Assembly: GCA_921293015.1 (NCBI GenBank)
Contig: OV121091.1
Coordinates: forward strand, 13,731,755-13,795,754
Reading direction: 5' to 3'
Source of the DNA: Phorcus lineatus
Taxonomy: Eukaryota; Mollusca; Gastropoda; Trochida; Trochidae
DNA length: 64,000 nucleotides
Numbering within the stretch: position 1 is the stretch's first letter; each line of letters starts with the position of its first letter. Under the pieces are notes generated by a model that was not told where the DNA came from, did not search any database, and was given only the letters and a program-made list of their open reading frames with translations. Below are positions 9,841 to 43,204 of this stretch, one piece after another. The position numbers and the translations under genes are program-made.

Positions 9841-9847
9841 TTAATTA

Positions 9848-9985: not shown

Positions 9986-10056
9986 ATTTTCACAGCGGTT
10001 AATATTTTAGTTGATAGTGACTAAGGGTATATATGACGAGTTTTTTTCATTTGCAG

Positions 10057-10183: not shown

Positions 10184-10734
10184 CCACCGTTTGAACTCTT
10201 CTTCATGAATATGTGTACCCAAATTACCCGCCCTTTTTTCTTGTTATGAATCCGAGACTATCGAAAGAATCAAACTGAACAAAATGTTCTTCATGAGGAA
10301 AACGCTTACCACTTACACCATTTTTTTCTGACGCGTCTGCAATAATTTTCATTTTCATGCCCGTTTTACAGTTTAGGGTTACGGTGCTTATCGGCGCTTG
10401 CCGTTTCATGTCGGAGGTGCTTCAAATCAAGTGCATCCCATCGCGAGTGGGTTATCAATCTAGTAATTGCACAGCCGATACTAATGACAGACGATTTCTT
10501 CATTCTGTGTATCGCCTATTTATCTTAGTTCTGTATGGAAAAAGGTAAGCATTAGCTGTTTTCATTGCATATTCGGCTGCGAAATTATATGTGTTCTATG
10601 TCATGTACATGTATGTTAGTGATGAAATGTTTGCCTAACGTGCATTAAAAAAGTGATCCTATGACCTAAAATGCTTGAAATGCAAGTCCAGGGAAGAGCA
10701 ACTCAAGATCACTCGCGTTGTACCATGCCTTTAA

Positions 10735-11193
10735 AGAGCCACTCCGTGATTTTCATAAGATATTATTTACCTTTGATACGAACCTAACTGTCATATGTGG
10801 TGATATAAAATCAAAACATCTTAACTGTTTGTGTCCAAAAATACTATGACAAATACTGGTTTTCCATTAAAATCTTATATCAGCCTTATAAATGCACACA
10901 GGTGTAGATATCATGTTCAAAATACATTGATGCTAGTTATATAACCTAATAAACACTATCAACTCCTAACTGCCCTCCTGACTGTTTTAGATAAGTCTCC
11001 AAAATTACGTTTGACTATTTGACGCGCGTCCAGTTTTCGATCATAACTGCGACGTTCTACCTCCTTATTGTCACTGTAAAAAAACAATAAGCTTTAAAAT
11101 GTGTCTTTTTGGTAACAGTCGGCACTTCGCGATGAAATGACACCATTGATTAATTTTGGCATATAGGACTCCAACAACTCACGGAGTGGCTCT
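10735..11193 (-). mobile_element. TTAA MITE, family A, copy 2 (unit 1)
   Basis: Terminal repeats AGAGCCACTCCGTGA / TCACGGAGTGGCTCT flanked by TTAA (10731-10734, 11194-11197). The flanking sequence matches that of the copies at 26058, 39018 and 52601, so the insertion predates the duplication of the units. Confidence 0.85.
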
Positions 11194-11305
11194 TTAAAGA
11201 GACTGTTAGGTCCAACCGACCTTTTGACCCAAAGTCGAACGCGCTAACCACTGCGGGGTCCTAGGTTTGATTATGTAATCAGCAACGGAACAATCGGCCC
11301 TGACA

Positions 11306-11557
11306 TTGTCGCGTTATCAACGTTTTTTGAAAGAGATTTCACAAAGGTGTAAGGACATACAATTTCAAAATTGGCCAAATAAGGTTTCAGGATCATCGGA
11401 TCTTAAACATTACAGTGGTTTCAAATCTGCTTTGAATGTCGAAAAATATATTCTCGAATTGTTTTCAGAGAATTACTTGTTGAGAATGTTTTGTAAATTT
11501 CGAAAATTTCATAAATTGAAAGTAGATCCCTCGGGTGTAAAAATTAAGATAACCTAA
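11306..11557 (+). pseudogene. Degenerate LINE ORF2 C-terminal fragment
   Basis: The 83-codon frame has a W-x(n)-LKHYSGFKSALNVEKYI pattern followed by basic residues. This resembles the linker between the reverse transcriptase and the terminal Cys-rich region of non-LTR retrotransposons. Corresponding segments at about 26640-26885, 39600-39845 and 53180-53425 are broken by frameshifts, so it is not under selection. Confidence 0.4.
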
Positions 11558-11569
11558 CTGCATTGATAT

Positions 11570-12870
11570 GTACAAAGTGTGTTCTCATTTGTATTGAAAA
11601 TGATTTATTTTTCTTACTTATCTGTTCTTTTTACAATACGAGTAGACAACATTTTTACCTGAATATCATAATGATAGAATGTATTAGTTGTTAACATCCA
11701 CAAATGCAGATGGATCTGTCTTTAAAACGAAGTTTGCCAATTTGAATGAGTATTATGTACATCTTTTCTGTATTAGCAATATGGTTCACGTGACCCCTTT
11801 AAAACAAGGATGTGTATTTAGCTCGGTCTATAGCCGATATAAGGTTACTTTATAATATATCTAGCGCGTACACGAACATTATCGAATATCTTCCGGGTTC
11901 GTGTTTCTATCCTGCTGTCATTCAGTAAGCGCCTGACCCGAGAGTCTCGGTTCCTCGGCAGTGCAGTGTCTATCATTTCCGTTCAGAAAGTACAGTTAAT
12001 CCATTGACCTACTTATTCAGGATGAGTGACGTTTTTCCTTTTGGTTGCATATTACCATCTGTAGCATGTTGTCTATATCCGCATATCAATATTGGCAGTG
12101 ATATTTTAGTTAGCCTTACCACACAAATCATTGTCAATCTAAGACTTGGCCAACACTTACATAAGCATTCAATGTAGTGAGTGAGTGAGTTGGGTTTTAA
12201 CGTGTTTTGAACAATATTTCAGTTATTAAAACACGTGGACGACGAGCATCCAAAAGAAAGTGGACAGATAAGGGAGAAGGGGATCGACAGGAAGATGGAA
12301 AAGACGGAAAGAAAGGCATAGTGAGAGGTAGACAACAGGCATTTAATGTACGCTTCAGTCATTATGGGACGGAAGTTATTGGAACTTTATCGTACTATAT
12401 ATATTTACAAAAAGCGCTTAATTCCATGTAAATCCACCAGAAAGAATAGTAATAGACCGCCATAAGAAAACAGATTGGAACATTGAATATATTAAATACA
12501 ACGTGTGTGAGATAGTGGGGGTTGGATTGCAAAGTGGCCAGAGTGTTCGGCTACAGATCAAGAGGTCTATGGTTCGAATCCCGTCAAAGGCTCAGCAACA
12601 TTGTCAACAGTAGAGAAATGTTCTACACGCAGTAAGGTTATCACGCAACGCTGCACTGAATGTCAGTGTCAGTATCACATATGTTTGCTAGTTCCAGCCC
12701 ATACGCAGGTTTCACGGCAATGCATAGCAACATTAATGTTGAAGGCTTTCTCCCTATTATATTATAGTGAAATACTCTTGGAAGCGGCATAAAACCTCAA
12801 ATCACGTCACCTCAACTTGCGATGGGAACCAGGTCACAACCTGAGGAAATGCGCGTGTACGTTAAAGTTG
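11570..12870. other. Segment specific to unit 1, SINE-rich
   Basis: Between TLR-array landmarks that are adjacent in units 2-4, unit 1 has about 1.3 kb extra. It holds a reversed SINE-like 3' end near 12176-12300, starting GTGAGTGAGTGAGTTGGGTT, and the SINE at 12512-12815. No gene was recognised. Confidence 0.5.
12512..12815 (+). mobile_element. tRNA-derived SINE, diverged
   Basis: A diverged copy of the SINE at 3824. Box B-like GGTTCGAATCCCG is kept near 12572, followed by the body motifs and a 3' end AAGCGGCATAAAACC before a CTCAC-like tail. Confidence 0.7.
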
Positions 12871-14003
12871 ACATTTCACGCCGCTGTCGTAGCATGAGTA
12901 TTACTGATATGACCTACATACTCACTCACTGCGACGCTCAACAACTGCAAAGAAAAAATTCAAAGAAACGAAAGGGCAAACAGGTTCTTTTAACATTTCG
13001 ATTGAAATTTATTGGGGAAAAAATACATAAGATTAAATCGAAAATGGGTTATTTCTATGAAATGAAATCGAAAGTAGGTTTCTTTAAGAATGTATTCATT
13101 ATCTTGAGAAAAATCTTAACACGATATTTACTGCAATGAATGAATTCGTCTTTACACCCATAATAATCGAGTTACCTCGTGCACATATTTGCGTCGTAGT
13201 CATTTGCAACATACAGAAAAGATTAAAAATCAATAAGAAAAGCGCCTCAAGGACAAATGCTTTGAAAGGTTGATCATAGATTATTCTAAACATGGGTTTT
13301 CCAGCTACCTGGCGAACAAATACCCCGAAAGGTAATTTACTTCCTGGAAGGTAAATACGTGCGTGTCATTGTCATTACACAAGGGCATGGCTGCGTGAGA
13401 ACAGCATACAAGGTTAGTGCTCAGACTTTCATATAAGTTTTTTTATTAGCTTTAACCTCTTGTTGAAAATGCATGAACGTGATTTTGAATCATATAATAT
13501 GTGTTGTGCATCGCCGTGCCCCCTCTCAAGATGCACTCAGCTTAATCCGAGCTCTTGAGGTTTACCTTAGAGTAATATTCAAGTGATCACATGAATTTAT
13601 GCTTGATCTTAGTGTGGTCTTTTGGGTGCAGTCGTTCTAAAACCTACTGACTTTCTCGCACTATGCTTTTCTTTGCGTCTTTTCCCTCACTGATCTGTCC
13701 ACTCACTTTTGGATGCTTGTCTTTCACTTGTTTAATAACTGATTTATTTTTCACAACACGTTAAACCCAAACTCAAACACTCACTCATTTTGGTACATCA
13801 GGAAAAACTTTGACAACCAGTTTAAGCTGGAGAGGTCGCAGGATAGAATAAAGTGCGACCAAGTTTGATTCGTTCTAAAACCTGCTGTCATCTACTCACT
13901 TTGCTTTTATTCCATGTTTTTCCTCAGGCTTGGTTCCCATTTTGATAGAATCCAGAGTCGAACCTTAAGTCTTTATAAATCTGACTCCCCGTAGTCGTCT
14001 TAA

Positions 14004-14471
14004 AGAGCCACTCCGTGAGTTGTTGGAGTCATATATGCCAAACTTAATCAATGGTGTCATTTCATCGCGAAGTATCGACTGTTACCAAAAAGACACATCT
14101 TAAAGCTTATTGTTTTTTACAGTGACAATATGAAGGTTGAACGTCGCAATTATGATCGAAAACCGGACAGTGGCGCGCGCCAAATAGTCAAACGTAATTT
14201 TGGAAACTTATCTAAAACAGGCAGGAGAGCAGTTAGGAGTTGATAGCGTTTGTTAGGTTATATAACTAGTATCCATGTATATTGGACGTAATGTCTACAC
14301 CTATGTGCATTTATAAGGCTGTTTTTAGATATTCATGGAAAACCAGTATTTCTCATATATATGTCTTTTGGACATGAAAAGTTAGGATGTTTTGATTTTA
14401 TATCATCACAGATGACATTTAGGTTCGTATCAAAGATAAATGATATGTTATGAAAATCACGGAGTGGCTCT
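14004..14471 (+). mobile_element. TTAA MITE, family A, copy 3 (unit 1)
   Basis: Same family as the copy at 6787, and in the same orientation. Terminal repeats AGAGCCACTCCGTGA / TCACGGAGTGGCTCT, with TTAA at 14000-14003 and 14472-14475. It is found only in unit 1, so it was inserted after the unit 1/2 split or was lost from the other units. Confidence 0.85.
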
Positions 14472-14529
14472 TTAAGATATACATTAAGTGAACGAAGAAA
14501 TCGAATTTAATCATCAGGTCGCCGCTAAT

Positions 14530-14580
14530 GGCTGAAATATTGCCCAAGCGGCGTTAAACAATAACTCACTCACTCACCCA
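14530..14580 (+). mobile_element. SINE 3'-end fragment with (CTCA)n tail
   Basis: GGCTGAAATATTGCCCAAGCGGCGTTAAAC followed by ACTCACTCACTCAC in form; only the 3' end is present. Similar tails occur at 13720-13790 and 14885-14950, and reversed at 12176-12225. Confidence 0.5.
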
Positions 14581-15423
14581 CTAATCACTAATCATCAGGT
14601 AAAATTCAAAGTCTACATGATTTTCAAGTAACCACCGCTCGCGTTGTTCTTGGCTGTTGAACTAAATCGGACATTTTGACAGTTTGACAGATAAATTTCA
14701 CATTACTATAAATATACAGAGACATGACGTAAAAAACCCGACTAAACATTCACGATGTGTCCACGCTTGACAGGTTAGGGCTAACGAACAGTCATTGTAA
14801 ACACAACCTTTCTTAAAAAAAATATAAATATATATAATTTTGCGATAAGACACTAACAAATGGCGTCGCCTCCTCTACTTTCATCCACATGTTAAATAAC
14901 TAAAATATTGTTGAAAACACGCTAACTTAAATTCACTTAGTCTCTCACTCAAGTAAAATATTTAACGTTGACAGGAATTGCAGTTGCAATTCTGATGATA
15001 AAACGTTTTTCCCTTATCTGCTGTAAACCAATACCAGGTATCAGTAAGTGCAATATTAGCCGAGAAGAGTTGTCTGCAATTATGTTTGTTTTACTAAACG
15101 TTTTTCTGTTCAATCGGTTTAAACAATATTTATTTCAGAAAAGAGAAAGGGATTGGTAAACAGGCTAGCAGCCTATCTGAATACCTCTCCCATACATACA
15201 TACATATATACATTTATACACCATATCTTAATTCATCATCATTGAAGTTAGCAGACTTTAAGATAAATATCTTCCCTGACCGATACCGAACTGACCTCAA
15301 ATTTACTCCTCGTCTATTTAAAGTTTGCCACCTTAGAGTGATCATTCACTCATGTCCTAAATAACTTTATATCATCCTTTCACCTTTTTCTCGCATAACT
15401 CAAAATACATTACCTTTATCAAT

Positions 15424-16212
15424 CCTCCTCACCTCGCCTCGCTTCTCAACTCACTTCAATTTACTTTACATTGTCTCACCTCACTGACCTCACCTCACCT
15501 CACTTCACCTTGCCTCACTTCACTTCTTGTATCACTTCAACTGTCACTCTCCTCACTTCACCTCTCGCCTCTACTCATCACCACTCACCAAACTTCGCCT
15601 CTCTCCTCTACTCATCACCACTCACCTCACTTCGCCTCTCATCTCTACTCATCGCCACTCACCTTATTTCACCTCTCACCCCTACTCATCACCACTTACC
15701 TCACTTCGCCTCTCGCCTCTACTCATCACCACTCACCTCACTTCGCCTCTCGCCTTTACTCATCACCACTCACCTCACTTCGCCTCTCACCCCTACTCAC
15801 CTCACTTCGCCTCTCACCTCTACTCATCACCACTCACCTCACTTCACCTCTCACCTCTACTCATCTTTACTCACCTCTCACCCCTACTCATCACCACTCA
15901 CCGCCACTTACCTCACTTCGCCTCTCACCTCACCGCCACTCACCTCACCTCTCACCTCTACTCATCACCACTCACCTCACTTCGCATCTCGCCTCTACTC
16001 ATCACCACTCACCTCACTTCGCCTCTCACCTCTACTTATCGCCACTCACCTTATTTCACCTCTCACCTCTACTCATCACCACTCACCTTATTTCACCTCT
16101 CACCTCTACTCATCACCACTCACTTCACTTCACTTCTCACCTCAACGCCACTCACCTCACTACACCTCACCGTACCGTCTCACACTTAACTTCACCTCAA
16201 ATCACCGCACTT
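15424..16212. repeat. CTCACC-type minisatellite (unit 1)
   Basis: Degenerate tandem DNA made of CTCACC/CTCATC/TTCGCC blocks, with a higher-order period of about 37 bp. The + strand is almost free of G. The 220-250-codon frames across it encode only Ser/Thr/Leu/His/Pro repeats and are not genes. Confidence 0.9.
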
Positions 16213-16314
16213 TACTTTAGCTTAACTCACTTTCATGAATCCCAGTTAATTGTCCCAACATACAATCATGACTTCAATCAACGTGATCTCTTTGAGACAA
16301 TATTAGCTGTTTTA

Positions 16315-17995: not shown

Positions 17996-19250
17996 ATAAC
18001 GCCAACGTGATTTGGAGGACTTTGTTATGTTTTAAATGATAACATTATTGGCACCTGACTAAAAAGTTAAAAGGAAGGGCTTGCTTAAAAAAAAGTCAAT
18101 GGAGAATTAAAATTTGTTTTTCACTATCCGATATTGCTCAAATCTGTTGCAATGCCTGATATTAAAATTACCTAAGTAAATCGGCCGGTTTCAGGAACTT
18201 AAAGTCCAATTGATGTGGAATTGTAATTCCTTTAAAGAAACCAGAATGTGGCATATTGCCCCATGAGACATATATCAATGTGCCTATTATTCGTCCTAAC
18301 CTCAATTACTAAAAAAGAAGTTTAACATCGTTGAAGAGATGATAAAAATCCATGTATCGCGGATACAAATACGCTGGCGAAGCAGGATGCATAATTGATT
18401 AAACTTGTTCACACCTTTATAGTTCAGAGATACTTTATTAATTTCTCATGAATACACGATGTATCCTGAATAACATTTAGGAATTTTCCTCATAATTTTC
18501 ATTGTATCATTACACAACGTAGGTTTTGTATTTGGTCAACATTATGTAGTAGGTACTAAGTGGACTTAATGTTTCCTAAATACGATACCTACATGCCGTG
18601 GTATTAATTATAATCAGTCGGACTTTTGATCATCCTCGGACATCCAGGGCTTAATTATTTCCCCAATACTCTTCACAATCGCCCCCAGGACTTTTCCTTT
18701 GGAAAATCTAAACCTAATTTATCCGCCCTTGATTTGTTTAAGGCAATGAACAGCTACGTTGAGAAAATTGCTTTTTGCTCTTAGCTAATAATTTCGTGTT
18801 TTATCCTGAGTAGGAAAGGTTACAATATAAATTTCAAATTAATATTATTGAACATGAACTGAAATGGGCTGTTATTTCAGCTTTAACAAACGCACATTTT
18901 CACATTTCGTATCACGCCATTTCAATGGGTTATTATTTCATAACGAGATTTAAGGGCAGGTAATGCGAGAACACATTTTGCTGATGAAAGTCGTAGAGAT
19001 GATTATGAACGTAACATTATGCCATTGAAAGTTAAAATGTAACTTTAATTAAATACTGAAATCTTGTTAAGATGACCTTGTCAAGAGGATGTGAAATTCT
19101 GAGGTAGCAAAGAAATAGGTCAAATTTCTATAAGGATCGTTTAACCTTGTGCTTGTATGTATCGATACTGTGCACAATTATCATCCATGTGTCTTTTGAT
19201 AAAAAAAAATCTGTTCGATATTTCAGCCTGTAATTATTTTAACTAAAGAG
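17996..19250. promoter_or_regulatory. Upstream region of TLR1
   Basis: This stretch aligns with 31096-32265, 44679-45848 and 58262-59431 upstream of TLR2-4. It is clearly diverged in unit 1 (many substitutions and small indels) and essentially identical among units 2-4. A transcription start should lie here or slightly downstream, but no TATA box or defined element can be assigned. Near 18359-18389 it holds GCGGATACAAATACGCTGGC followed by GAAGCAGGATG, resembling one end of the foldback element at 5423. Confidence 0.4.
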
Positions 19251-19356
19251 GCTGTTCAGTTGATATCATCCCCTGTCGCTGGTAATACGGAAACGGAAAG
19301 TACAGATTTCCCTGCTGAAAAGTTCCAGTGGTGATCGAGGAAAGAGCTGTTTACAG
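19250..19356 (+). other. Candidate non-coding 5' leader exon of TLR1
   Basis: A splice donor TTTACAG|GTAAGG ends this stretch and is conserved in all four units (ends at 19356, 32368, 45951, 59534). It would pair with the acceptor CTTGTGTTCCAG at 20405, removing a 1,049-nt intron. No ATG occurs in the ~100 bp before the donor. The 5' end of the exon is not defined. A leader-exon/single-coding-exon arrangement is common for invertebrate TLR genes. Confidence 0.45.
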
Positions 19357-20417
19357 GTAAGGTTTCAAACAATGATTGCTCCGTGTTCCAAACGGGACTT
19401 ATTGCAGCATTTGTGCACATTGTTCAGGGAGAATTACACTATCACGTTCACTGGCAGGTTTGTCCACAAGCAAGAGAATGAGATCTACAGAAGCTTCATC
19501 GTGCACCTCAAAAATCCCAGGCTCTTACAATTCATTTCCCGGAGATTTTTAAAATAGGTCACATACCATGAAACTAAACATAATGAAACCATGTGAAACG
19601 ATCTTCTTCTTTCTCATATGAGGTTATCAGTTACTTACATCCTGTGTTCTTACATGTCACATCCCGTAAACAAAATTAAATTATGTGATAAGGCTGTTTG
19701 AATCGTCTCAATATTGATTGATAAGACTAAGAATTTTCCTTGATTCAGCCAATACTTTGTAACTCAAATGATACAAAAATAGTAAAACCATTTGGCAATT
19801 GACCACATGGTGTATATGCTTGCTCTGATAACCATGTGATAATGATTTTTGATAAACAAATGCCCCAAATCAGTTTAACAGACATTTACCCTATCAATGT
19901 GCATTTGCCATTCTTTTCAAACCGATATGATTGCAATTCAAACCCTTATACAAATATTAGCATCGTTGATACCACATTTTACTTAAATGCATTTGATAAA
20001 AAAAAATAAATGAAGAATCGAGAATAAGTACATTTCTTATTCAGACACAATTGTATTAATAGTAAATGTACCAGTTACATCAAATTTCAAACATCATTAT
20101 ATCAAAATCTATGTTCCGTGTGTTTGCCAAAAATGTGTTTGTTAAAATTCGGTCTTAAAATCTAAAACTATTTCATGATTCAGGTTTAGTAGCTATAATC
20201 TAAATCTAAATCTTCCGGTTGTCTATTCTAATACTCCCTAAAATCATATATCAAGGATCAATATCAAAACTTCTCATTTCATTCTAATTATTTAGTGTGA
20301 CATCATAAGTCATAATGCCTCAAAATCAAACCTTTAATTATAAATCAGTCATCTTAGGTAAGCTGTCCCTTGAACTTTAATGTCAAACCTTTTCTTGTGT
20401 TCCAGGAGATATTGGTC

Positions 20418-22958
20418 ATGATGAGAATCCTGTTTGGACTTTTGTTCGTTACGCATCTGGCACTTGGACAGATTTCTTACCCCTGTGGACAATGTTCCTG
20501 TTTTCGTCGAGGAGTGATGGTGTATGCGGACTGCAAAGATCGGGACCTCTCTGGTGTTCCTCCAGCTATACCTCAGGAAACGGCATGGCTTGATCTATCG
20601 GGAAACAACTTTACGGAACTTTCACAATACCAATTCTTTCAATTTCAAAACTTAAGGTATCTTAATCTATCAAGTAACCAAATAGAGAAAGCTTACGACT
20701 CTGCATTTGCTGGTTTAGGTAAGCTCCATTTTCTCCGGTTGGATAACAATTTGTTGCATTATGGCAAACTCAACAAGTCAAATCTCTTCAAGCCGCTGAG
20801 GAACCTCACGTATTTGAATATATCATCAAACAATTTCATCCTTATATCTCCATTTACTTACTATCCCGATATGGCTTTGAGTTATTTGAGGAAACTTGAG
20901 GTTTTACAAATGGATGGTCTTCCCAATAGGGAACTTGGCCTTGAATTCAGACGTTTGAAAAATCTGATAGAGCTCAATCTGTCTGGTGCTTGTTCAATCC
21001 TGTCGTTGAATAATTATACATTTCAGCATGTCCCTCATATTCAAGTTCTCATTTTGAACGACTGTCATATATCAAGTATATATCCTGGTTCAATCTCGCA
21101 TATGTCCAATCTGACATACATAGACGTTTCCAATAACAAGGGTTTGAGGATGGCAGGAATCAGAAACCTGACCTATGAGCTTCGAAACATGCCTTTGAGA
21201 TATCTATACATGAACAGTGTTGTTCCTTCTTACTCTGTCTGTGTAGTATTGAAAGATGAATTTATCATGAACTTGAATAACACACGTTTGAGAGTATTCA
21301 GTGCAAATGACAACTACATCGAAAAGTTTGGTGATGATGCCCTACCTTACTTTCCAAAATCCCTTATGAATTTGTCGCTAAGAGAGAACAAATTTACATT
21401 TGGGCCATATATCAAGGACATCCAAGTGATGACAGGTTTGGAGGAAGTAGACCTCAGCGGTATACATAGAGCTCACGAATTTCCTTCCTTTAGAAGCACT
21501 TTTCCAAAGGTTTCCAGTTTTGCTCAAAATGAAATATGGTCGGATGAATGTGATGATGATTGCTATAGCCCTTCAATTTCAAGCATCCCAAGTCCAAAGT
21601 TAACCCTGATGGATGGAGTTCATATCCCAGTTCCCCCCAACCTAAAAAACATCACATATTCCTATTCCCAACTTCCCTACCACATTGGGAATATGATAAT
21701 TGGTAACAACACTTTGGAAAAGGTTGATGTATCAAGCAACATTCTGTCCACATGGTCGGGGCCTGTAACCGGGCTCGAACACCTGAAACATCTGGACCTG
21801 TCAAACAACCTTGCCAAACACATCTACCCTCATTTCTTCCATACTTTTCCCGGACTTGAAATCCTGAACGTCTCTGATAATTTCATGGGATTTGTTTTGA
21901 ACAACGACACAAACGGGACTGTTTTCATGCATCAAACAAACATGCGCATTCTTGATCTCCGATCTAACTTCATCTCACAATTGGACAAGGCCGTTTTCAA
22001 AGGTCTTGTGTCTCTTGAGACTCTGTTCCTCCAAGGGAATAACATTCATCCTGCTTTTGTCGTTGACGTTAGTGACATGGTGAATCTGACCTTTATTAAT
22101 CTGAGAAATAATCAGATTCGTTGGTTTGACAAGCACGTCATTGATGCCATCAACAAGATAGCTGATAAGCGTAATGTGTCTATAGACCTCTCTCAAAACC
22201 CGATCGCTTGCACATGTTATAATCTTGAATTTCTCTCTTGGATAAACAATCCCAAACACAATTTACATTTTGTAAATATCCACCATTACTTCTGCATGTT
22301 CAGCAGCGGGAAAAATCAAAGTTTAGCTGATTTCCAAACGGTTTATGAGGAGCTGAATAACTCTTGTAACACTTACTTTGGTCTCTCCCTTGGACTAGTT
22401 GCTGCTGTTGCTCTTGTATTCTGCATCATTATCGTCGGGATCCTGTATCGATATCGCTGGAAGCTAAGGTATGTTTATTACGCTGCTCGACTCAAATACA
22501 GCAAGTTAACCGAGAGAGCTGATGATGGCAACTTTGAATTTGATGCTTTTGTCTCCTTTGCTGAGGAAGATCGGGATTTTGTCGTCAACGATCTCTGGGA
22601 AAAGTTGGAAAACGAGGCTGGAGTGAATTTGAATCTTCATCAACGAAATTTCAGACCGGGACGTCCAATAGCTTCGAACATTGTTGACGCTGTGAAGAAC
22701 AGCCGCAAGACGCTTGTTCTTCTGTCCAAGTATTTTCTGGATAGCTATTGGTGTGTCTATGAAGTCAACATGGCCACGATGGAAAGTTTCAATACTGGAA
22801 GAGATGTTTTGGTAGTCGTGATGCTTGAACAGATACCACCGAAAGATATTCCTCCTGAAATACAGTGTCACCTCCAGAAAGACTCATATCTGGAGTACCC
22901 AACAGAAGGGGACAAAGATGTCTTTTGGAAGACCTTGATTGAATCCTTAAATCGATAG
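20418..22958 (+). CDS. Toll-like receptor, copy 1 (TLR1)
   Basis: A membrane pattern-recognition receptor; the family signals through TIR-TIR contacts with adaptors such as MyD88. The open frame could begin at TTG 20370. A pyrimidine-rich TTCCAG acceptor ends at 20405, and the first ATG of that exon is at 20418 (a second at 20421), giving 846 residues. Numbered from the second ATG: signal peptide 1-17; LRRNT cysteines 22, 25, 27, 38; LRRs with many N-glycosylation sites; an LRR-interrupting loop with C377-x3-C381 and a Ser/Pro-rich stretch; one LRRCT (C597, C599, C625, C649); a transmembrane helix about 653-676; TIR 705-845. The TIR has box 1 FDAFVSF, a BB loop RNFRPGRPI with the conserved Pro, and box 3 FW. 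One LRRCT makes it a single-cysteine-cluster TLR. It is intact and looks functional. Its first ~336 codons are diverged from the other copies and the rest is identical. The ligand is unknown. Confidence 0.93.
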   Translation: MMRILFGLLFVTHLALGQISYPCGQCSCFRRGVMVYADCKDRDLSGVPPAIPQETAWLDLSGNNFTELSQYQFFQFQNLRYLNLSSNQIEKAYDSAFAGLGKLHFLRLDNNLLHYGKLNKSNLFKPLRNLTYLNISSNNFILISPFTYYPDMALSYLRKLEVLQMDGLPNRELGLEFRRLKNLIELNLSGACSILSLNNYTFQHVPHIQVLILNDCHISSIYPGSISHMSNLTYIDVSNNKGLRMAGIRNLTYELRNMPLRYLYMNSVVPSYSVCVVLKDEFIMNLNNTRLRVFSANDNYIEKFGDDALPYFPKSLMNLSLRENKFTFGPYIKDIQVMTGLEEVDLSGIHRAHEFPSFRSTFPKVSSFAQNEIWSDECDDDCYSPSISSIPSPKLTLMDGVHIPVPPNLKNITYSYSQLPYHIGNMIIGNNTLEKVDVSSNILSTWSGPVTGLEHLKHLDLSNNLAKHIYPHFFHTFPGLEILNVSDNFMGFVLNNDTNGTVFMHQTNMRILDLRSNFISQLDKAVFKGLVSLETLFLQGNNIHPAFVVDVSDMVNLTFINLRNNQIRWFDKHVIDAINKIADKRNVSIDLSQNPIACTCYNLEFLSWINNPKHNLHFVNIHHYFCMFSSGKNQSLADFQTVYEELNNSCNTYFGLSLGLVAAVALVFCIIIVGILYRYRWKLRYVYYAARLKYSKLTERADDGNFEFDAFVSFAEEDRDFVVNDLWEKLENEAGVNLNLHQRNFRPGRPIASNIVDAVKNSRKTLVLLSKYFLDSYWCVYEVNMATMESFNTGRDVLVVVMLEQIPPKDIPPEIQCHLQKDSYLEYPTEGDKDVFWKTLIESLNR

Positions 22959-23218
22959 ATTCTTCTTACAATTATGAAGCTGGAACATAAGTCATAAACA
23001 CATATATTTTCGACATATCAACCCCCTCCCCCGTCGTAAACATATACCCCTTCTACTCACAAATGTGTTCCTGTCCTATAACCGTTTCACTACTCAAATT
23101 TGCCAAGTTATACTTGCCAAGTTATCGCACAGAGTATGTTGTTGGAGTCAAATATGTCAACATTTAGGGAAAGTTCTATTCTTTCTAGAGAATACATTTC
23201 TATACATTACATAGTCTT

Positions 23219-23224
23219 AATAAA
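23219..23224 (+). terminator. Proximal polyadenylation signal, TLR1
   Basis: AATAAA about 260 bp after the stop, present in all four copies (36223, 49806, 63388). Confidence 0.5.
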
Positions 23225-23406
23225 TGGTGTATATATTGAAAGCTTAATAATAACAACATAAATGACGTTACAATGGATACGCTGGATCTCTTATTCCTTC
23301 GATAGTTTTATATTCATATTTGCTACTGTACATTAGTGCTGTTTAGTGGAAGTTTTGTTTTTTCATATGTGTGTATTTAACTTGTAGAAATATATCTTAT
23401 GAAAAA

Positions 23407-23412
23407 AATAAA
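23407..23412 (+). terminator. Distal polyadenylation signal, TLR1
   Basis: AATAAA about 450 bp after the stop. It is kept in TLR4 (63576-63581) but removed by a 33-bp deletion in TLR2 (about 36403) and TLR3 (about 49986). Confidence 0.45.
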
Positions 23413-25431
23413 TTTGAAAATGTTTGATTCTATTTTCTTTGTTTTTAGTAAATTCGTGTATTATTATTCATGCAAATTGAAAAGGAATAGATAAAGGACA
23501 AAATGGACTGCATTGCAACGGATCCTAATACCACTGTGGTTGAAATTCAACTTCGTTATACAATCTCCCAAAAAGAACTAAGGGTTGAAAAAACTTATTC
23601 GTGTTTGCAGTAACTGAAATCATTATTTCTATCAAATAACTAACATAATCGATCGAATCTTCTTACATTAACCATTCGCAAAGCCATATTGTTTTATTTG
23701 ATAGACCTATCAGAATGTTTGCACTACTTAAGATCTAAATTTATCATTGAAAATAACATTCGGAGTTAAGATTATGAATCATTGTAGCGCAAAGATATTG
23801 GAACATATTGATTGCATGAAAGCCGACATTTTGGTATCAATTACTACAGAATAAACAAAGATGACAAACATAGAAGGAGGAAAAGTTATTTAAACACGAG
23901 ATTATATTATTGTTATTTATAACAATTATTAATCATTATATTCAGAATCTTCAACTCTGAAGGAGGGTCTAAACACTCTTCCTCGGGTAATTATCGCTAT
24001 ATATAGTTCTCATTTGTTGTGATTCAGGACACTGTGTGATACAATCATTACATGCAACATCTATTCTCCAGGCCTCGAATGTGAAGTAATACTTCAATGC
24101 ACGATCTAAGGGAGATAACCCAAGTGTATTCTTATTCAAATAATTCTGGTACATGTACATGACCCAGCAAATATATTTGACAAATATAGATTTGTGAATA
24201 ACCAATATTTATAAGAATACACTATTTATCATACAAAGCTGTTCGCTGCTTAAACCATGTAGATTGCTTGTGCCCTTGACCTAAGACCCATAATACTAAC
24301 ATAGAAAATTCAATTTATAGGTTATGTAGCTCATCGGACTGCATACAATATTAGAGGCCACCGGTTCACCGTTTGTGGGGCAACAGGGTCAACAAATCTC
24401 GAAATGTCTACAAAAAACCCAAACTATGTTTTTTCTCCCTGACATCAAGTCTTTTTAAACTGTATTTTATTTTAATGTTAAGAGCGTGACCTTTCAAGCA
24501 CATTAAATCTTCTTGATAAGCAACGATTTGAAGGTTTATGTACCAAGGATCTTGTCATCTTCATTTACATCTTAGATGTTATTTTCTTTAATTGGCCAGT
24601 TCAACTCAAGTTTTAATGTAAGTCGAGATCTAAAGCTTTGAAAAGTAACATTTATCGATTGGTCTTATGATAAAAGGTACACAAACCAAACGATAATTTT
24701 TTACCACTTTAACCATAAGTACAAGACTCCAAAGATATCACTTGCACCTTGCCAAATTGGAAATACGCATATGACATATCAAAAACGAAATGTAACGTTT
24801 CAGAAACTAAGAAAAATGGAAAGAGTTGTGGTCACAAGACACATCCTGGTAGACAATAGCCTGAAGACAAGGGCTATGGCTTCTGGTTTAAAAAAGGAAC
24901 AAACATAACAACATATCATATTTTAATAAGCAACAAGATCATAGAAATGAATAGGCAGGGGCATTAAAAGATAAAAGAAGCAATACAAGACCAAACGACA
25001 AAAGTTGTTGTCCAAATGTCTTGGATTCCTATTGATGAACTTTCTTTGCTTATTATATAATGCACAAGTGACATTAAAAAAACAAGACAACAAAAAATCT
25101 TTGGATTCATTAATATTTTGAAGTTTTGCCGCTTGATGAACAAAATGGAAACTATGAGTGAACAACGAATATCTTTTCGCGGAATAAGACTGAGTTTTCT
25201 CCTTTATCATGGATAATTTTGTGACGTCATCACAAATCTCTTTTTGTAAGTCGTAGATGTTCCATAGAAAATGACATCAAAACGATTCCGAAGTTCTGTA
25301 TGAAAAAAGGTAAGCATTAGCTGTTTTCATTGCATATTCGGCTTCGAAATTATATGTGTTCTATGTCATGTTCATGTATGTTGAGTGATGAATTTTTTGC
25401 CTAACGTGCATTAAAAAAGTGATCATATGAC

Positions 25432-25990
25432 TATGTCCAGAAATAGGCGTAGTAACCTTACTAAATTACGTTGTGGTGTTTTACCCCTTCATATAGAGAC
25501 AGGACGATATTGTAAACCCCCCACACCCCTAAATCATAGATTGTGCCCGTTTTGTGATGCTTTTGAGTCTGAAGCACATTTTCTTTGTAACTGTGACTTT
25601 TACCATGATCTTAAACGTACCCTTCTAAATAGTACTAGTTTTAACTCCGACGAAAGTGATTACCTGAAATTTAATGTACTTATGAATACAACTGAAACCA
25701 AAGCTCTTAAACTTTTAGCTGACACTATCAATAGTATGTTCCGCCGGAGACAATTTCATTCTTGACATATTTTACCTCTGTGTTATTTATATATATATTT
25801 ATTTATCTTATTTTATCCTATTATCTATTAACATAATCAATGTTGTATATATATATCAGTCTTAATAGTGTCTCGTAAGCCAAAAATATGGCTGGGTGAT
25901 ATGTTATATTTTATGCTATTACATTTGACATTTTAACTGTAACATATCATGTGACACTTTAATAAAATAATACTGTCTGTCTGTCTGTCT
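25432..25990 (+). mobile_element. 5'-truncated LINE with (CTGT)n tail, unit 2
   Basis: About 560 bp absent from the matching site in unit 1 (near 10,665). The frame ending at 25765 encodes an ORF2 C-terminus: KLRCGVLPLHIETGRY, then a CPFCDAFESEAHFLCNC finger. A 3' region with AATAAA and a CTGTCTGTCTGTCT tail follows. Copies in the same position are at 38392-38950 and 51975-52533. Confidence 0.75.
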
Positions 25991-26057
25991 AATATGCTTG
26001 AAATGCAAGCCTAGTGAAGAGAAACTCAAGATCAATCGCGTTGTACCATGTCTTTAA

Positions 26058-26526
26058 AGAGCCACTCCGTGATTTTCATAACATATTATTTACCTTTGAT
26101 ACGAACCTAAATGCCATATGTGGTGATATACAATCAAAACATCTTAACTTTTTGTGTCCAAAAGACATATATATGACAAATACTGGTTTTCCATTAAAAT
26201 CTTAAATCAGCCTTATAAATGCACAGAGGTGTAGATATCATGTCCAAAATACATTGATACTAGTTATATAACCTAATAAACACTATCAACTCCTAACTGC
26301 CCTCCTGACTGTTTTAGATAAGTCTCCAAAATTACATTTGACTATTTGACGCGCGCCACTGTCCAGTTTTAGATCATAACTGCGACGTTCTACCTCTATA
26401 TTGTCATTGTAAAAAAACAATAAGCTTTAAAATGTGTATTTTTGGTAACAGTCGGTACTTCACGATGAAATGACACCATTGATTAATTTTGGCATATGGG
26501 ACTCCAACAACTCACGGAGTGGCTCT
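26058..26526 (-). mobile_element. TTAA MITE, family A, copy 4 (unit 2)
   Basis: Orthologous to the copy at 10735: same flanks, same orientation, TTAA at 26054-26057 and 26527-26530. Confidence 0.85.
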
Positions 26527-26529
26527 TTA

Positions 26530-28500
26530 AAGAGACTGGCAGGTCCAACCGACCTTTTGACCCGAAGTCGAACGCGCTAACCACTGCGGGGTCCTAGGGT
26601 TGATTATGTAATCAGCAACGGAACAATCAGCCCTGACATTGTGGCAGTATCAACCTTTTTTTTAAAGAGATTTCACAAAGGTGTAAGGACATACAATTTC
26701 AAGATTGGCAAAATTGGGTTTCAGGATCATCGGATCTAAAACATTAGTGGTTTCAAATCGGCTTTGAAAGTCGAAAAATATATTCTCAAATTGTTTTCAG
26801 AGAATTACTTGTTGAGAATGTTTTGTAAATTTCGAAAATTCCATAAAATGAAAGTAGATCACTCAGGTGTCAAAGTTACGATAACCCAACTGCGTTGATA
26901 TCTACAAAGTGTGTTCTCATTTGTATTGAAAATGAAAATGACATTTCACGCCGCCATCGTAGCATAAGTATTACTGATATGACCTACATACTCACTCACT
27001 GCGACGCTCAACAACTGCAACGAAAAATTTCAATAAACGAAAGGGGAAACAGGTTCTTTTGACATTTCGATTGATATTTATTGAAAAATATACATAAAAT
27101 TAAATCGAAAATGGGTTATTTCTATGAAATGAAATCGAAAGTACGTTTCTTTAAGAATGTATTCATTATCTTGAGAAAAATCTTTCCACGATATTTACTA
27201 CAATGAATGATTTCGACTTTACACCCATAATAATTGAGTTACCTCGTGCACATATTTGCGTCGTAGTCACTTGCAATATACAGAAAAAAAATCAATATGA
27301 AAAACGCCTCAAGGACAAATGCTTTGAGAGGCTGATCATAGATTATTCTAAACATTGGTTTTCCAGCTACCTGGCGAAGAAATACCCCGAAAGGTAATTT
27401 ACTTCCTGGAAGGTAAATACGTACGTGTCATTATCATTACACAAGGACATGGCTGCGTGAGAAGATCATACAAGGTTAGTGCTCAGACTTTCATATAAGT
27501 TCTTTATTAGCTTAAACCTCTTGTTGAAAATGCATGAACGTGATTTTGAATTTTATAACTGTATTATGCATCGTCATACCACCTTTCAAGATGCAGTCTG
27601 CTTAATTCAAACTCTTGAGGTTTACCGTAGAGTAATATTCAAGTGATCACATGAATTTATGCCTTTTTATAGTGTGGTCTTTTGGGTGCAGGCGATCTAA
27701 AACTTACTGACTTTCTCTCCCTATGCATTTCATTTCGTCTTTTCCCTCATCCTTACGCATGTCACGCTTGTCAAAGTGGAACATGTGCGTTTGTTGTTTT
27801 TTTGAAAATGGACAAATGTGAAGGGAGGTCGCATCTGGAACGAGGCTTTTTACCTCGATCTGGGCACTTCCGTCTTGAGATGACGCCATAAAAACTCGCC
27901 TTTCACTAATTGAAGTAACGTATCTGTAATTAAAAAGGTGACATATACGTGGTTCCACTGGTGAATTGGAGTTAGGTCATTTATGAATACGTCAGGAGGG
28001 ATATTTACCGATGTCACTTTATGAGTATGTTTATAACATCATATATAGCGGAGCTTGATATGCCTACGTGAAATGCCTTGTTGTATATTGTATATGGCCT
28101 GTATCAATGTCTCCCGTGCTTGTGGTTTTTCCCCAACTATCTGTTGAAAACCAACACCAGGTTTCCTTAAGTAAAATATGAGCCAAGATGAGTTGTCTGC
28201 AAATATGTTTGGCCCTTCGTGACTTCACTTGGCGCTTATGGTGTAAACATATTTATTCAGAGAAAAACTGATGGGATTGGCAAACAAGCAAAATCTTTGC
28301 TTATATAAATGCCTCTCCCGACAATATACAAATATAAACTTTCATAAAATGATGACGTTCACAAAACATTTAAGAACAGATCAGATATGCATGTACATTT
28401 GCAGGCTTACATACTATGATTTAAAGATAATTTTTTTTAAATTTCGCAAGGCAATTGAAGAAGGTAATGTAAGTTGGTTAAGACAAATCTGAAAATCTTT
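26530..28500. other. Spacer of unit 2, no gene supported
   Basis: It matches unit 1 at about 11.2-11.6 and 12.87-15.2 kb. It contains a frameshifted LINE remnant (26640-26885) and small frames such as 27203-27397 whose reading is not consistently kept in unit 1. Nothing here can be called a gene. Unit 3 and 4 counterparts start at about 39,490 and 53,073. Confidence 0.5.
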
Positions 28501-28553
28501 TAGAGGAAACTATGAAATTATGGACAGATTTTAAAAATTTGTTATTATGTTGA

Positions 28554-29465
28554 TCAGTAGAGGATAGATGGTAGATTATAACCTTTTTGAAAAAAGTATG
28601 TGTTTAGTCTTAATTCGTGGTAAGTGGGACAAATTAGGTAGAAGTGGAGTGCATCCTCAAAGTGATGACCGCAGTTGCAGTTAGGGGTATCGGATATAAA
28701 TCTGATGAATTTATCACCGTTTAAGTCACTGCAGCCAAGCCGAAGACGGGAGTGAATTATCTGGCAGAATCTTGACCCATGAAATAAATTAAAATGAATC
28801 GGGTTGCTATTGGTGTCTTTTAATTTCCTTTTGAATTCTGCAAGTGAGCTGGAGTTGACCACGTCCGGGGGGAGGGAATTCCAGATATTGACCGTGTCTG
28901 GTAGAAACGATTTAGAGTAATTACTTGTGTTGCATTTTATGCTTTGAAGGTCGGAATAGTTTCTTAAATTGTACCGACTTGCGTCGGACACAGTGTCAGG
29001 TATTAGGTTTGATAAATATTCAGGTACTAGTTTATTAACCATCTTATAAAAGACATACAGTTTCTGGCGATGTCTACGCTTCTCTAATGAAGTAATGTTA
29101 GTTTCTGAGTATAACTTTTCATGACTTGTGCCGCGAACGGCACCACAAATAGTTCTAATTGCGTCCAGATTAAGTTTTTCTAGAAGTACAGATTGCTCTT
29201 TTGTACAATTATCCAGGATGTGGCATGAATAATCGAAAACTGGTAATATAAATGATTTATACATGGTCTGAAGGGTTTTACGATTAAGGCGGTATTTAAA
29301 ACTTCTAAGGCAATTTATCATTGGACTTACCTTTTTGATAATACTATCAATATGGTTATGCCACATGCAATCCTGTTGTAGAATTAATCCTAGATGTCTA
29401 TGAGATGAAACGTCCTTTATAGGTGTATTATTCATAGATAAGACTTGGCGCTTATTGATCAGCAT
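28554..29465 (-). mobile_element. LINE reverse-transcriptase C-terminal fragment, unit 2 (frameshifted)
   Basis: The minus-strand frame of 303 codons covers the end of an RT domain and the following region of a non-LTR retrotransposon. It has HLGLILQQDCMWHNHI, FILPVFDYSCHI, WNSLPPDVV and a Cys/His finger NCNCGHHFEDALHF. It lacks the RT catalytic core and ORF1, so it is a 5'-truncated dead copy. A 17-bp deletion near 28562, relative to units 3-4, cuts off the last ~31 codons. It is absent from unit 1. Confidence 0.75.
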
Positions 29466-29504
29466 GCCACAATACAGGTATCCTTCTCTGGAAGTTAGAA
29501 AAAT

Positions 29505-29656
29505 GGGTCTCTGTAAATTAGATGTGTAGAAATCTTCCTATGGAACAATATATGTATAGAAACCTACTATAACAGCCATTGGGTCTTTGTGAAATAGATG
29601 TATTGAAATCTTCCTGTGGAACAATAGATGTCTAGAAACCAAATGTAACTGCCCTC
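29505..29656. repeat. 76-bp imperfect tandem duplication, unit 2
   Basis: Two adjacent 76-bp units begin GGGTCTCTGT (29505) and GGGTCTTTGT (29581). They share GAAATCTTCCT, TGGAACAATA and TAGAAACC blocks. The same pair occurs at 43205 and 56788. Confidence 0.7.
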
Positions 29657-30110
29657 TTAAGAAATATTCAACGAAACCAATCTCCACTTCAATATGACTC
29701 AACGATGTTTTTTACCATGAGAAATAGCATGTTCTACCAGAATGCACATGTCATGTCAAGTGGGATTAGTTTATGCGTACCGGTTTGGATCACTAGTTTC
29801 GGTGCAGTAATTTTAGCCGTCGTGAAATGAAAGTGAAACCCACTCTCAACCGATCTTAGACTTTCACAATCATCACGTTTGACTACGTCGAAATAGATGT
29901 AATTCACCTTTTTCATCCAAACCCGACTCACCTATTCTCGAATTCCAATCTGCCCCCATCTTCCCTCGCCGATACCAAACGGACCTCAAATTTACCCACC
30001 TTAGAGCGATCATTCACTCATATGTTAAATAACTTTAAATCATCCTTTTACCTTTTACTCGCAGAACTTAACCTTATCTTTACCTAAATTGCATTAACTT
30101 TATCAATTTT

Positions 30111-31003
30111 CCTCACCTCGTCTCGCTTCTCACTTCGCTTCAATTTACTTCACCTTGCCTCACCTCACTTCTTATATCACTTCAACTGTCACTCTCCTCA
30201 CTTCGCCTTTACTCATCACAACTCACCTCACTTCACCTCTACTCATCACTACTCACCTCACCGTCACTTACCTCACTTCTCACCTATACTCGTCACCACT
30301 CCCCTCACTTCGCATCTCACTTCTACTCATCACTACTCACCTCACTTCGCCTCTCACCTTACCGCCACTTACCTCACTTCGCCTCTCACCTCACCGCCAC
30401 TCACCTAACCTCTCACCTCTACTCATCACCACTCACCTCACTTCGCAACTCACCACCACCTTTCTTCACCTCAACGCCACTCACCTCACTTCACCTCCCC
30501 GATATAATCCTTTCACCTTTTACTCGCAGAACTTAAATTACATTACCTTTATCAATTCTCCTCACCTCGTCTCGCTTGTCACCTCGCTTCAAGTTACTTT
30601 ACTTTGACTCACCTCACTCACCTTATTTCACCTCTCACCTCTACTCATCACCTCTCACCTCACTTCGCCTCTCACCTCACCTCTGCTCATCACCACTCAC
30701 CTCACGTCACGTCTCACCTCTACTCACCGCCACTTACCTCACTTCGCCTCTCACCTCACCGCCACTCACCTCACCTCTCACCTCTACTCATCACCACTCA
30801 CCTCACTTCGCATCTCACCTCTTCTCATCACCACTCACCTCACTTCGCCTCTCACCTCACCGCCACTCACCTCTACTCCATTCACCTTATTTCACCTTTC
30901 TTCACCTTAACACCACTCACCTCACTTCACCTCACCGTAACCGTCTCACAATGAACTTCACCTCAAATCACCGCACTTTACTTGAGCTTACCTCACTTTC
31001 ATG
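30111..31003. repeat. CTCACC-type minisatellite (unit 2)
   Basis: Same family as 15424-16212. It is longer than the blocks of units 3 and 4, which lack an internal stretch around 30,355-30,475 and one CGTCA unit. The frames across it are low-complexity, not genes. Confidence 0.9.
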
Positions 31004-32264
31004 AATCCCATTTAATTTTCCCAACATACAATCATGACTTCAATTAACGTGATCTGTTTGAGACAATATTAGCTGTTGGTAGTTAGTATTTAAGGTGGAT
31101 AACGCTAACGTGATTTGGAGGACTTTGTAATGTTTTAAATGATAACACTATTGGCACCTGACTAAAAAAGATATAAGAATAGGCTTGCTTCGAAAAGGTC
31201 AATGGAGAACTAAGATTTGTTTTTCACAAATCTGATGTGCCTATTATTCGTCCTCATCCCAATAACTTAAAAAAGACATAAAATTTTACATCATTGAAGA
31301 GATTATAAGAATCCGTGTATCGCGGATACAAATACGCTGGCGAAGCAGGATACATATTTGATAAAACTTGTTCACACCATAATAGTTCAGAGATACTTTA
31401 TTTATTACTGATGAATACACGATGTATCCTGAAAAACATTTTGGAATTTTCCTCTTAATTTTCATTTTATCATTACACAACGTAGGTTTTGTATTTGGTA
31501 AACATAATGTAGTAGGTACTAAGTGGACCTAATGATTCCTGGCTACGATACCTACATGCTGTGGTATGAACTATCATCAATCGGACCTTTGATCAACCTC
31601 GGACATCCAGGGCTAAATCATTGCCCCAATGCTCTTCACAATCGCCCTTAGGACTTTTCCTTTGGAAAATCTACAGCTTATATCATTCGCCCTTGATTTG
31701 TTTAATGCAATGAACAGCTACGTTGATTGGACAAGAGCGCCTCTCAGAAGACTTGTTACAAAACACTTTCCGTTGAGAAAATGGCTCTTTGCTTTAAGCT
31801 TATAATTTCGTGTTTTATCCTGAGTAGGAAATGTTACCTTAAAAAATTTCAAATTGAAATTATTGAGTATGAACTAAAATGGGCTGTTATCTCAGCTTTA
31901 AAAAACACATATTTTCACATTTCGTATCAAGCTATTTCAATGGGTCATTATTTCATAACGAGATTTAAGGGCGAGTAAATCGAGAATTACTTTTGCTGAT
32001 GAAAGTCCGAGGGATGATTGTGAACGTAACATTACGCCATTGAAAGTTAAATTGTAACTTTAATTACATACTGAACTCTTGTTAAGATGACCTTGTCAAG
32101 AGGATGTGAGATTCTGAGGTTGTAAAGAAATAAGTCAAATTTCTATAAGGATCGTTTAACCTTGTACATGTATGTATCGATGCTATGCACAAGTATCATT
32201 TATGTATCTTTTGAAAAAAAAAATTGTTCGAAATTTCAACCTGTAATTAATTTCAGCTAAAGAG

Positions 32265-32368
32265 GCTGGTCAGTTGATATCATCCCGTCGCTGGTAATAC
32301 GGAAACGGATAGTACAGATTTCCCTGCTGAAAAGTTCCAGTGGTGATCGAGGAAAGAGCTGTTTACAG
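32265..32368 (+). other. Candidate non-coding 5' leader exon of TLR2
   Basis: Counterpart of the TLR1 leader. The donor TTTACAG|GTAAGG is at 32368/32369 and the acceptor ends at 33411 (intron 1,043 nt). The exon start is not defined. Confidence 0.45.
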
Positions 32369-33426
32369 GTAAGGTTTGATTGCTCCGTCTTCCAAATTCA
32401 GGGAGAATTACACTATCACGTTCACTGGCTGGTTTGTCCACATGCAAGAGAATGAGATCTACAGAAGCTTTATCGTGCAACTAAAAAATCCAGGACTCTT
32501 ACAATTCATTTCCCAGGGATTTTTAAAACACGTCACATACCATGAAACTAAACATAATGAAACCATGTGAAACGATATTCTTCTTTCTCATATGAGGTTA
32601 TCAGGTACTTAAAAGTTACATCCCGTGTTCTTATACAAGCCACATCCCGTTAACAAAATTAAATCAAGTGATAAGGATGTTTGAAACGTTGCATTTTTGA
32701 TTGATAAGAATTAGAATTTGCCTTGATTCATACATTACCTTGTAACTCAAATGATACAAAATAGTAAAATAATTTGGCAATTGACCACATGGTGTTTATG
32801 CTTGCTCTTATAACCATGTGATAATGAATTTTGGTAAACAAATACCCCAAATCAGATTAACAGACATTTACCCTATCAATGTGTATTTGCCATTCTTTTC
32901 AAAACGGATATGATTACAATTCAAACCCTTATACAAATATTAGTATCGTTGATAGATCGTACCATATCTTACTAAAAATACATTTGAAAAAAAATAAATG
33001 AAGATTCGAGAATAAGTACATTTCTTATTCAGACACAATTGTGTTAATAGTCAATGTAACAGTTAAATCAAATTTCAAACATCATTATATCAAAAGTAAT
33101 ATGCTCATGTCAATGTTCCGTGTGTTTGCCAGTCTCTTAGAATTCGGTCTTAAAATCTAAAACTATTTCATGATTCAGGTTAAGTAGCTATAATCTAAAT
33201 CTAAATCTTCCGGTTATCTTCCCTAATACTCCCTAAAACCATAAATCAAGGGTTAATATCAAAACTTCTCATGTCCTTCTAATTATTCAGTGGGGTCATA
33301 ATGTCAGAATTACAAGTCACAATGCCTCAAATCAAACCTTTAGTTATAAATCGGTCATCTTAGGTAAGCTGTCCCTTGAATTTAAAAGTCAAACCTTTTC
33401 TTATGTTCCAGGAGATATTGGTCACG

Positions 33427-38251: not shown

Positions 38252-38391
38252 AGTTCTGTATGAAAAAAGGTAAGCATTAGCTGTTTTCATTGCATATTCG
38301 GCTTCGAAATTATATGTGTTCTATGTCATGTTCATGTATGTGGAGTGATGAATTTTTTGCCTAACGTGCATTAAAAAAGTGATCATATGAC

Positions 38392-38950
38392 TATGTCCAG
38401 AAATAGGCGTAGTAACCTTACTAAATTACGTTGCGGTGTTTTACCCCTTCATATAGAGACAGGACGATATTGTAAACCCCCCACACCCCTAAATCATAGA
38501 TTGTGCCCGTTTTGTGATGCTTTTGAGTCTGAAGCACATTTTCTTTGTAACTGTGACTTTTACCATGATCTTAAAAGTACCCTTCTAAATAGTATTAGTT
38601 TTAACTCCGACGAAAGTGATTACCTGAAATTTAATGTACTTATGAATACAACTGAAACCAAAGCTTTTAAACTTTTAGCTGACACTATCAATAGTATGTT
38701 CCGCCGGAGACAATTTCATTCTTGACATATTTTACCTCTGTGTTATTTATATATATATTTATTTATCTTATTTTATCCTATTATCTATTAACATAATCAA
38801 TGTTGTATATATATATCAGTCTTAATAGTGTCTCGTAAGCCAAAAATATGGCTGGGTGATATGTTATATTTTATGCTATTACATTTGACATTTTAACTGT
38901 AACATATCATGTGACACTTTAATAAAATAATACTGTCTGTCTGTCTGTCT
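38392..38950 (+). mobile_element. 5'-truncated LINE with (CTGT)n tail, unit 3
   Basis: Same insertion as 25432-25990, with a few point differences (for example Arg to Ser and Leu to Phe in the ORF2 remnant). Confidence 0.75.
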
Positions 38951-39017
38951 AATATGCTTGAAATGCAAGCCTAGTGAAGAGAAACTCAAGATCAATCACA
39001 TTGTACCATGTCTTTAA

Positions 39018-43165: not shown

Positions 43166-43204
43166 GCCACAATACAGGTATCCTTCTCTGGAAGTTAGAA
43201 AAAT

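What the first reader, a model, noticed from the sequence alone, without database searches (positions are those of the whole stretch)
20418..22958. Sharp recombination or gene-conversion boundary inside TLR1
Counting by eye, TLR1 and TLR2 differ at 26 amino acids (plus about 20 synonymous codons) up to nt 21426-21428 in TLR1, and at 0 amino acids with about 3 synonymous changes over the remaining ~1.53 kb. The non-coding upstream flank is also diverged, while the downstream flank is nearly identical. So the switch marks a crossover or conversion edge, not just selection on the ectodomain. The result is a variable membrane-distal LRR half fused to a homogenised LRR/TM/TIR half. This could diversify recognition while signalling stays constant.
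Basis: partly seen in the sequence, partly recalled or inferred. Interest (0 to 1): 0.82.

Follow-up and report, generated by a model that had tools for sequence, protein, structure and literature searches.

The report
Unequal crossover inside tandem TLR genes
In a row of nearly identical copies of an animal immune-receptor gene, the first copy changes abruptly from an old, diverged sequence to a young, almost identical one partway through, most likely the scar of an ordinary unequal crossover between neighbouring copies.

Summary
TLR1 and TLR2 differ at 54 of 1,010 bases up to 21427 and 3 of 1,531 after it; amino-acid differences go from 26 to 0, dS from 0.118 to 0.0093, and the best split is 21428 (0 of 20,000 permutations). 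It is not selection: upstream flank 9.2%, downstream spacer 0.89%. An ordinary conversion tract fits poorly: low divergence runs 9.3 kb to a minisatellite at 30.7 kb, with no second edge. Left of the edge, matches to the unit reach at most 94.3% identity. Best reading: an unequal crossover inside a TLR coding sequence at the left end of a 13.6-kb tandem array that later amplified. Whether TLR1 or TLR2-4 are the hybrids cannot be decided. Half-homogenised TLRs are known from mammals and birds. Unreported before: a cluster of 7 substitutions plus a 3-bp deletion in 85 bp of TLR4 (1 of 200,000 permutations), the better candidate for true conversion. Copy number, assembly and other paralogues of the genome could not be checked.

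The parts
20418..22958 (+). TLR1: LRR ectodomain, transmembrane segment (read by eye), TIR; 846 codons from 20418, start shared with the other copies at 20421
   Evidence: Pfam LRR_8 4.8e-44, TIR 9.9e-16; best of the listed solved relatives are TLR3, TLR5 and TLR7
20418..21427 (+). Older-class 5' part of TLR1 (54/1,010 differences from TLR2; dS 0.118)
21427..21484 (.). Breakpoint interval: last older-class difference at 21427, 95% bound about 56 bp further
21428..22958 (+). Young-class 3' part of TLR1 (3/1,531 differences from TLR2, all synonymous)
18278..20417 (.). Upstream flank u1, older class (192/2,086 from u2; u2, u3 and u4 identical over 2,189 aligned bp)
10527..16311 (.). Unit 0: older-class remnant of a unit spacer, in pieces (10527-10665, 10666-11603, 12865-13689, minisatellite 15269-16311); tblastn finds no TLR to its left in the window
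22959..30706 (.). Spacer d1 after TLR1, young class (0.28-1.13% from d2 by piece), ending in a minisatellite
28164..28171 (.). Empty site of the insert carried by units 2 and 3
33424..35964 (+). TLR2; this stretch is identical to TLR3 (shared start at 33427)
41145..41848 (.). 704-bp insert with inverted ends and an 8-bp target duplication (MITE-like), in unit 2; same at 54728-55431 in unit 3
30707..47102 (.). Stretch that matches itself 13,583 bp further on with 1 mismatch (at 36781): the youngest duplication
47007..49547 (+). TLR3 (shared start at 47010)
60590..63127 (+). TLR4 (shared start at 60593)
61714..61798 (+). Cluster in TLR4: 7 substitutions and a 3-bp deletion, in a stretch of the ectodomain where the LRR motif search found none; candidate conversion tract from a donor outside the window
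   Evidence: 1 of 200,000 permutations as tight

Best explanation
The window holds the left part of a tandem array of a TLR gene with a repeat unit of about 13.6 kb. An older array had units differing by roughly 4-9%. An unequal crossover between two misaligned TLR copies, about 337 codons into the gene, joined older DNA on the left (unit 0 spacer, u1, 5' part of TLR1) to the 3' part and spacer now shared by the units on the right; right-hand units were then amplified, units 2 and 3 very recently. Shown: one abrupt change of divergence class at 21427/21428 that holds at synonymous and non-coding sites, older class in the DNA to its left that could be compared, young class in every comparison made to its right. 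Inferred: that one crossover made it, the order of events, and that the 0.3-1.1% between d1 and d2 is either time since the exchange or a difference between alleles brought into cis. Function: no change of function is shown; the predicted products are uninterrupted TLRs, whose 3' halves are identical in protein between TLR1, TLR2 and TLR3.
For: Split at 21428, 0 of 20,000 permutations. dS 0.118 (24 of 219.7 sites) vs 0.0093 (3 of 323.5); Fisher 1.3e-7. Synonymous divergence of the 5' part fits the upstream flank (24/220 vs 192/2,086, p 0.40), that of the 3' part fits the far part of the d1-d2 spacer (3/323 vs 42/3,723, p 1.0). Flanks 9.2% vs 0.89%, p 5e-64. In the three spacer pieces compared, d0 is 4.3-7.8% from d1 and d2, which are 0.7-1.6% from each other. 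TLR2, TLR3 and TLR4 follow at exactly 13,583 bp (33427, 47010, 60593); TLR1 to TLR2 is 13,006 bp, the difference being mostly the insert that unit 1 lacks. TLR2 and TLR3 coding DNA identical; one mismatch in 30707-47102 at lag 13,583.
Against: d1-d2 divergence is uneven (4/1,435 and 7/2,167 vs 42/3,723; p 0.0025 and 0.0009), so one event with even ageing is too simple. A second change of class at 30,707, in the minisatellite, and a third in TLR4 need further events. TLR4 shares with TLR1 two adjacent bases at 20514-20515 inside the older-class part, a small exchange or a double change in the ancestor of TLR2/3. No outgroup, right end of the array or read data were available.
Confidence: 0.74

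Rival explanations
1. Gene conversion: the 3' part of an older-class TLR1 was overwritten by a neighbouring copy, as reported for mammalian TLR1/TLR6.
For: Edge inside the LRR region and homogeneous C-terminal LRRs, TM and TIR, as in PMC2077338. Divergence is lowest in the TLR 3' part (3/1,531) and the first 1.4 kb after it (4/1,435), which extra conversion could produce.
Against: The tract would have to be at least 9.3 kb and mostly intergenic, running into the next unit without a second edge. In nine mammals the inferred tracts are 893-1,033 bp and end before the stop codon.
Confidence: 0.13
2. Assembly artefact: units from two haplotypes, or collapsed or expanded identical units, were joined wrongly.
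For: Units 2 and 3 match with 1 mismatch over more than a whole 13.6-kb unit, hard to assemble. d1 and d2 differ by about 1% with presence/absence of an insert, as alleles might.
Against: A misjoin usually needs long exact overlap (inference); just left of 21428 the two classes differ about every 19 bp (54/1,010). The young side of TLR1 has its own differences from TLR2-4 (22415, 22466), so it is not a copy of those units. No reads could be examined.
Confidence: 0.11
3. Selection alone: the distal ectodomain diverges under positive selection and the rest is constrained.
For: All 26 amino-acid differences lie within residues 20-337.
Against: Synonymous and flanking non-coding sites change class too; dN/dS of the 5' part is about 0.33.
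Confidence: 0.02

Closest known systems
Mammalian TLR1/TLR6 gene conversion (PMC2077338; abstract and the section on conversion read)
   Same: Tandem TLR paralogues, diverged N-terminal LRR half, homogeneous C-terminal LRRs, TM and most of TIR, sharp edge inside the LRR region.
   Different: There the tracts are 893-1,033 bp and end before the stop codon; here similarity runs 9.3 kb past the edge and the copies form a large-unit tandem array.
Avian TLR1A/1B and TLR2A/2B conversion (PMC3125219; 12 of 39 passages seen)
   Same: Edge inside the ectodomain (LRR14 to TIR for TLR1A/B).
   Different: Boundaries unchanged when the 3'-UTR was added, except about 200 bp in cattle TLR1/6.
Bivalve TLR expansion by tandem duplication (review PMC12521104; 8 passages seen)
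   Same: Invertebrate TLR copies arising by tandem duplication.
   Different: The terms gene conversion and recombination do not occur in that text. The organism here is not identified.
Sea urchin Sp185/333 clusters (PMC5103432, PMC3091723; search listing and start of abstract only)
   Same: Immune gene clusters; segmental duplications and short tandem repeats (PMC5103432), a putative microsatellite role (title of PMC3091723).
   Different: Unrelated gene family (recalled).

Membership tests
Toll-like receptor | LRR ectodomain | tested here: met
   LRR_8 4.8e-44, 5 stretches
Toll-like receptor | Cytoplasmic TIR domain | tested here: met
   TIR 9.9e-16, residues 708-802; TIR_2 5.5e-16
Toll-like receptor | Single transmembrane helix between them | not tested
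   Hydrophobic run at about residues 655-677 read by eye; no predictor run, and the AlphaFold model was unusable (mean pLDDT 32.7)
Gene conversion of the mammalian TLR1/TLR6 type | Sharp 5' edge inside the LRR region | tested here: met
   21428, codon 337
Gene conversion of the mammalian TLR1/TLR6 type | Second edge near the end of the coding region | tested here: not met
   Young-class similarity continues to 30.7 kb
Gene conversion of the mammalian TLR1/TLR6 type | Paralogues more alike than orthologues in the tract | not testable with these tools
   No orthologue or relative's genome was reached; the genome search did not complete
Array formed by unequal crossover | Head-to-tail copies of one unit, gene and flank changing class together | tested here: met
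   Spacing 13,583 bp between TLR2, 3 and 4 and 13,006 bp between TLR1 and 2; gene and flank change class together
Array formed by unequal crossover | Complementary half at the other end of the array or in another haplotype | not testable with these tools
   The window ends 873 bp after TLR4

The most novel reading that the evidence does not exclude
The TLR coding sequence is itself the recurrent exchange site of the array, so the array keeps producing receptors with new combinations of distal and proximal LRR halves (TLR1 edge at 21428, a change of class inside TLR4, and a short tract in a non-LRR stretch of TLR4 from an unseen donor), while the TIR domain stays nearly constant.
Probability: 0.13. 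Interest if true: 0.55.

Novelty: new member of a known kind. Interest (0 to 1): 0.3.

Why it matters
It is a clean example of how a tandem immune-receptor family renews itself, with the exchange point placed within about 56 bp and with non-coding flanks that help to tell crossover from conversion. The principle is established, so the gain is one more case, in an animal that could not be named here.

Tried and rejected
Structure prediction of TLR1 from an alignment of three window proteins gave mean pLDDT 32.7 and was not used; no fold search was run and the substitutions were not mapped on a surface. Pfam at E up to 10 for two other ORFs gave four matches, all under their curated cut-offs: Sushi (0.0011), PFF1_TM (0.031), Vir1p (0.08) and RdDM_RDM1 (0.19); only Sushi seems meaningful. 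tblastn of TLR1 against the whole window (E up to 0.01) found the four copies and no remnant in unit 0. Literature searches. Searches (mollus, Toll-like receptor, unequal crossing, LRR: 1 paper, on Sp185/333; Toll-like receptor, chimeric, gene conversion, oyster: 0 papers) gave no invertebrate TLR precedent; that is no proof that none is in print. Selection alone was rejected on synonymous and flank data. The synonymous chi-square was run with two edge limits; both gave the same split, and only the second was permuted. The 7-substitution window of the TLR4 test was chosen after seeing the data, so its figure is optimistic.

Full report
What is there. The window (36.5% G+C) carries four TLR genes on the + strand (20418-22958, 33424-35964, 47007-49547, 60590-63127). 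TLR1 and TLR4 were scanned and match LRR and TIR models; the best of 60 listed solved relatives of TLR1 (265 matched) are TLR3, TLR5 and TLR7. A splice-acceptor-like CAG just before the start (sequence printed) suggests an upstream non-coding exon; this is by eye. The organism could not be identified; an invertebrate animal, perhaps a mollusc, is my guess from recall and rests on no call.

The observation. 54/1,010 bases differ before and 3/1,531 after. The split at 21428 was not reached in 20,000 permutations. At the density of the older class the edge lies within about 56 bp after 21427.

Why not selection. Synonymous divergence falls from 0.118 to 0.0093. The synonymous rate on each side fits non-coding DNA on the same side (p 0.40 left; p 1.0 right, against the 1.13% part of d1-d2). 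Upstream 9.2%, downstream 0.89%. The 5' part has dN/dS of about 0.33: no positive selection on average; single sites cannot be tested with two classes.

Why crossover rather than conversion. Right of 21428 the young class runs through spacer d1 to the minisatellite at 30.7 kb, and from there units 2 and 3 and the start of unit 4 agree almost exactly (one mismatch at lag 13,583 from 30707 to 47102). Left of 21428 the comparable DNA is of the older class: u1 at 9.2%, and pieces of a spacer d0 between 10,527 and 13,689 at 4.3-7.8% from d1 and d2, which differ by only 0.7-1.6% between themselves in those pieces. No match of 1-18,300 to unit 2 exceeds 94.3% identity; those in the minisatellite are 69-79% alike, and two (6783-7259, 14000-14475) are inverted dispersed copies that say nothing about the array. 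So the window falls into two halves of different age with the edge inside TLR1. A conversion tract would need a second edge; none is seen.

Which gene is the hybrid. With old copies A and B, crossover gives either A5'-B3' (TLR1 is the hybrid) or A followed by B5'-A3' (TLR2-4 are hybrids). Both predict what is seen between TLR1 and TLR2. The right end of the array, outside the window, would decide.

Later events. The 704-bp insert with an 8-bp target duplication is in units 2 and 3 and not in unit 1; unit 4's site is outside the window. Leaving out the cluster below, the 3' coding parts of TLR1, TLR2/3 and TLR4 are about equally distant: TLR1-TLR2 3/1,443, TLR1-TLR4 3/1,443, TLR2-TLR4 2/1,443, TLR2-TLR3 0/1,443; the upstream flanks u2-u4 are identical over 2,189 bp. 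With the cluster, TLR1-TLR4 is 10/1,528 and TLR2-TLR4 9/1,528. TLR1 and TLR4 share indel states in the downstream flank that TLR2/3 lack (2 bp and 33 bp), and two adjacent bases at 20514-20515 in the 5' part. So TLR4 too seems to join a youngest-class 5' side to a slightly older 3' side. d1-d2 divergence is uneven, which one event does not explain. The 1% may be an allelic difference brought into cis, so it gives only an upper bound on age (inference).

TLR4 cluster. Of 12 substitutions between TLR3 and TLR4 coding DNA, 7 lie in 85 bp with a 3-bp deletion beside them; 1 of 200,000 permutations is as tight. The cluster size was set after seeing it, and the last three substitutions with the deletion may be one complex event; both weaken the figure. 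In protein it changes D to G, D to N and IP to D in residues 379-404. No donor lies in the window.

Limits. The genome search did not answer in six tries and whole genomes were not available, so 'all paralogues in the genome' were not tested. On the four copies at hand TLR1's 5' half lies outside TLR2-4 variation (53-54 differences of 1,010 vs 0-3).

Known background. Half-homogenised TLR paralogues are established in mammals (PMC2077338, abstract and conversion section) and birds (PMC3125219, passages), and tandem duplication in bivalve TLRs is reviewed (PMC12521104, passages). This is a new instance of a known kind.

Noticed in passing
61714-61798: Tight cluster of 7 substitutions and a 3-bp deletion in TLR4, absent from TLR1-3.
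   Followed up: yes
30707-47102: Near-perfect self-match at lag 13,583 bp (1 mismatch): very recent duplication or an assembly repeat.
   Followed up: partly
41145-41848 and 54728-55431: 704-bp insert with inverted ends and 8-bp target duplication, missing from unit 1 (empty site 28164-28171).
   Followed up: yes
15269-16311, 29958-31077, 43658-44660, 57241-58243: CTCACC-rich minisatellite in each of the four spacers seen; the left edge of the youngest duplication (30707) lies in it.
   Followed up: partly
28554-29465, 42161-43165, 55744-56748 (- strand): ORF repeated in three spacers, 303 aa in unit 1 and 334 aa in units 2 and 3, that looks like the C-terminal part of a LINE polyprotein (recalled; no Pfam support).
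   Followed up: partly
2724-3470: ORF with a borderline Sushi (CCP) match, E 0.0011, below the curated cut-off.
   Followed up: partly
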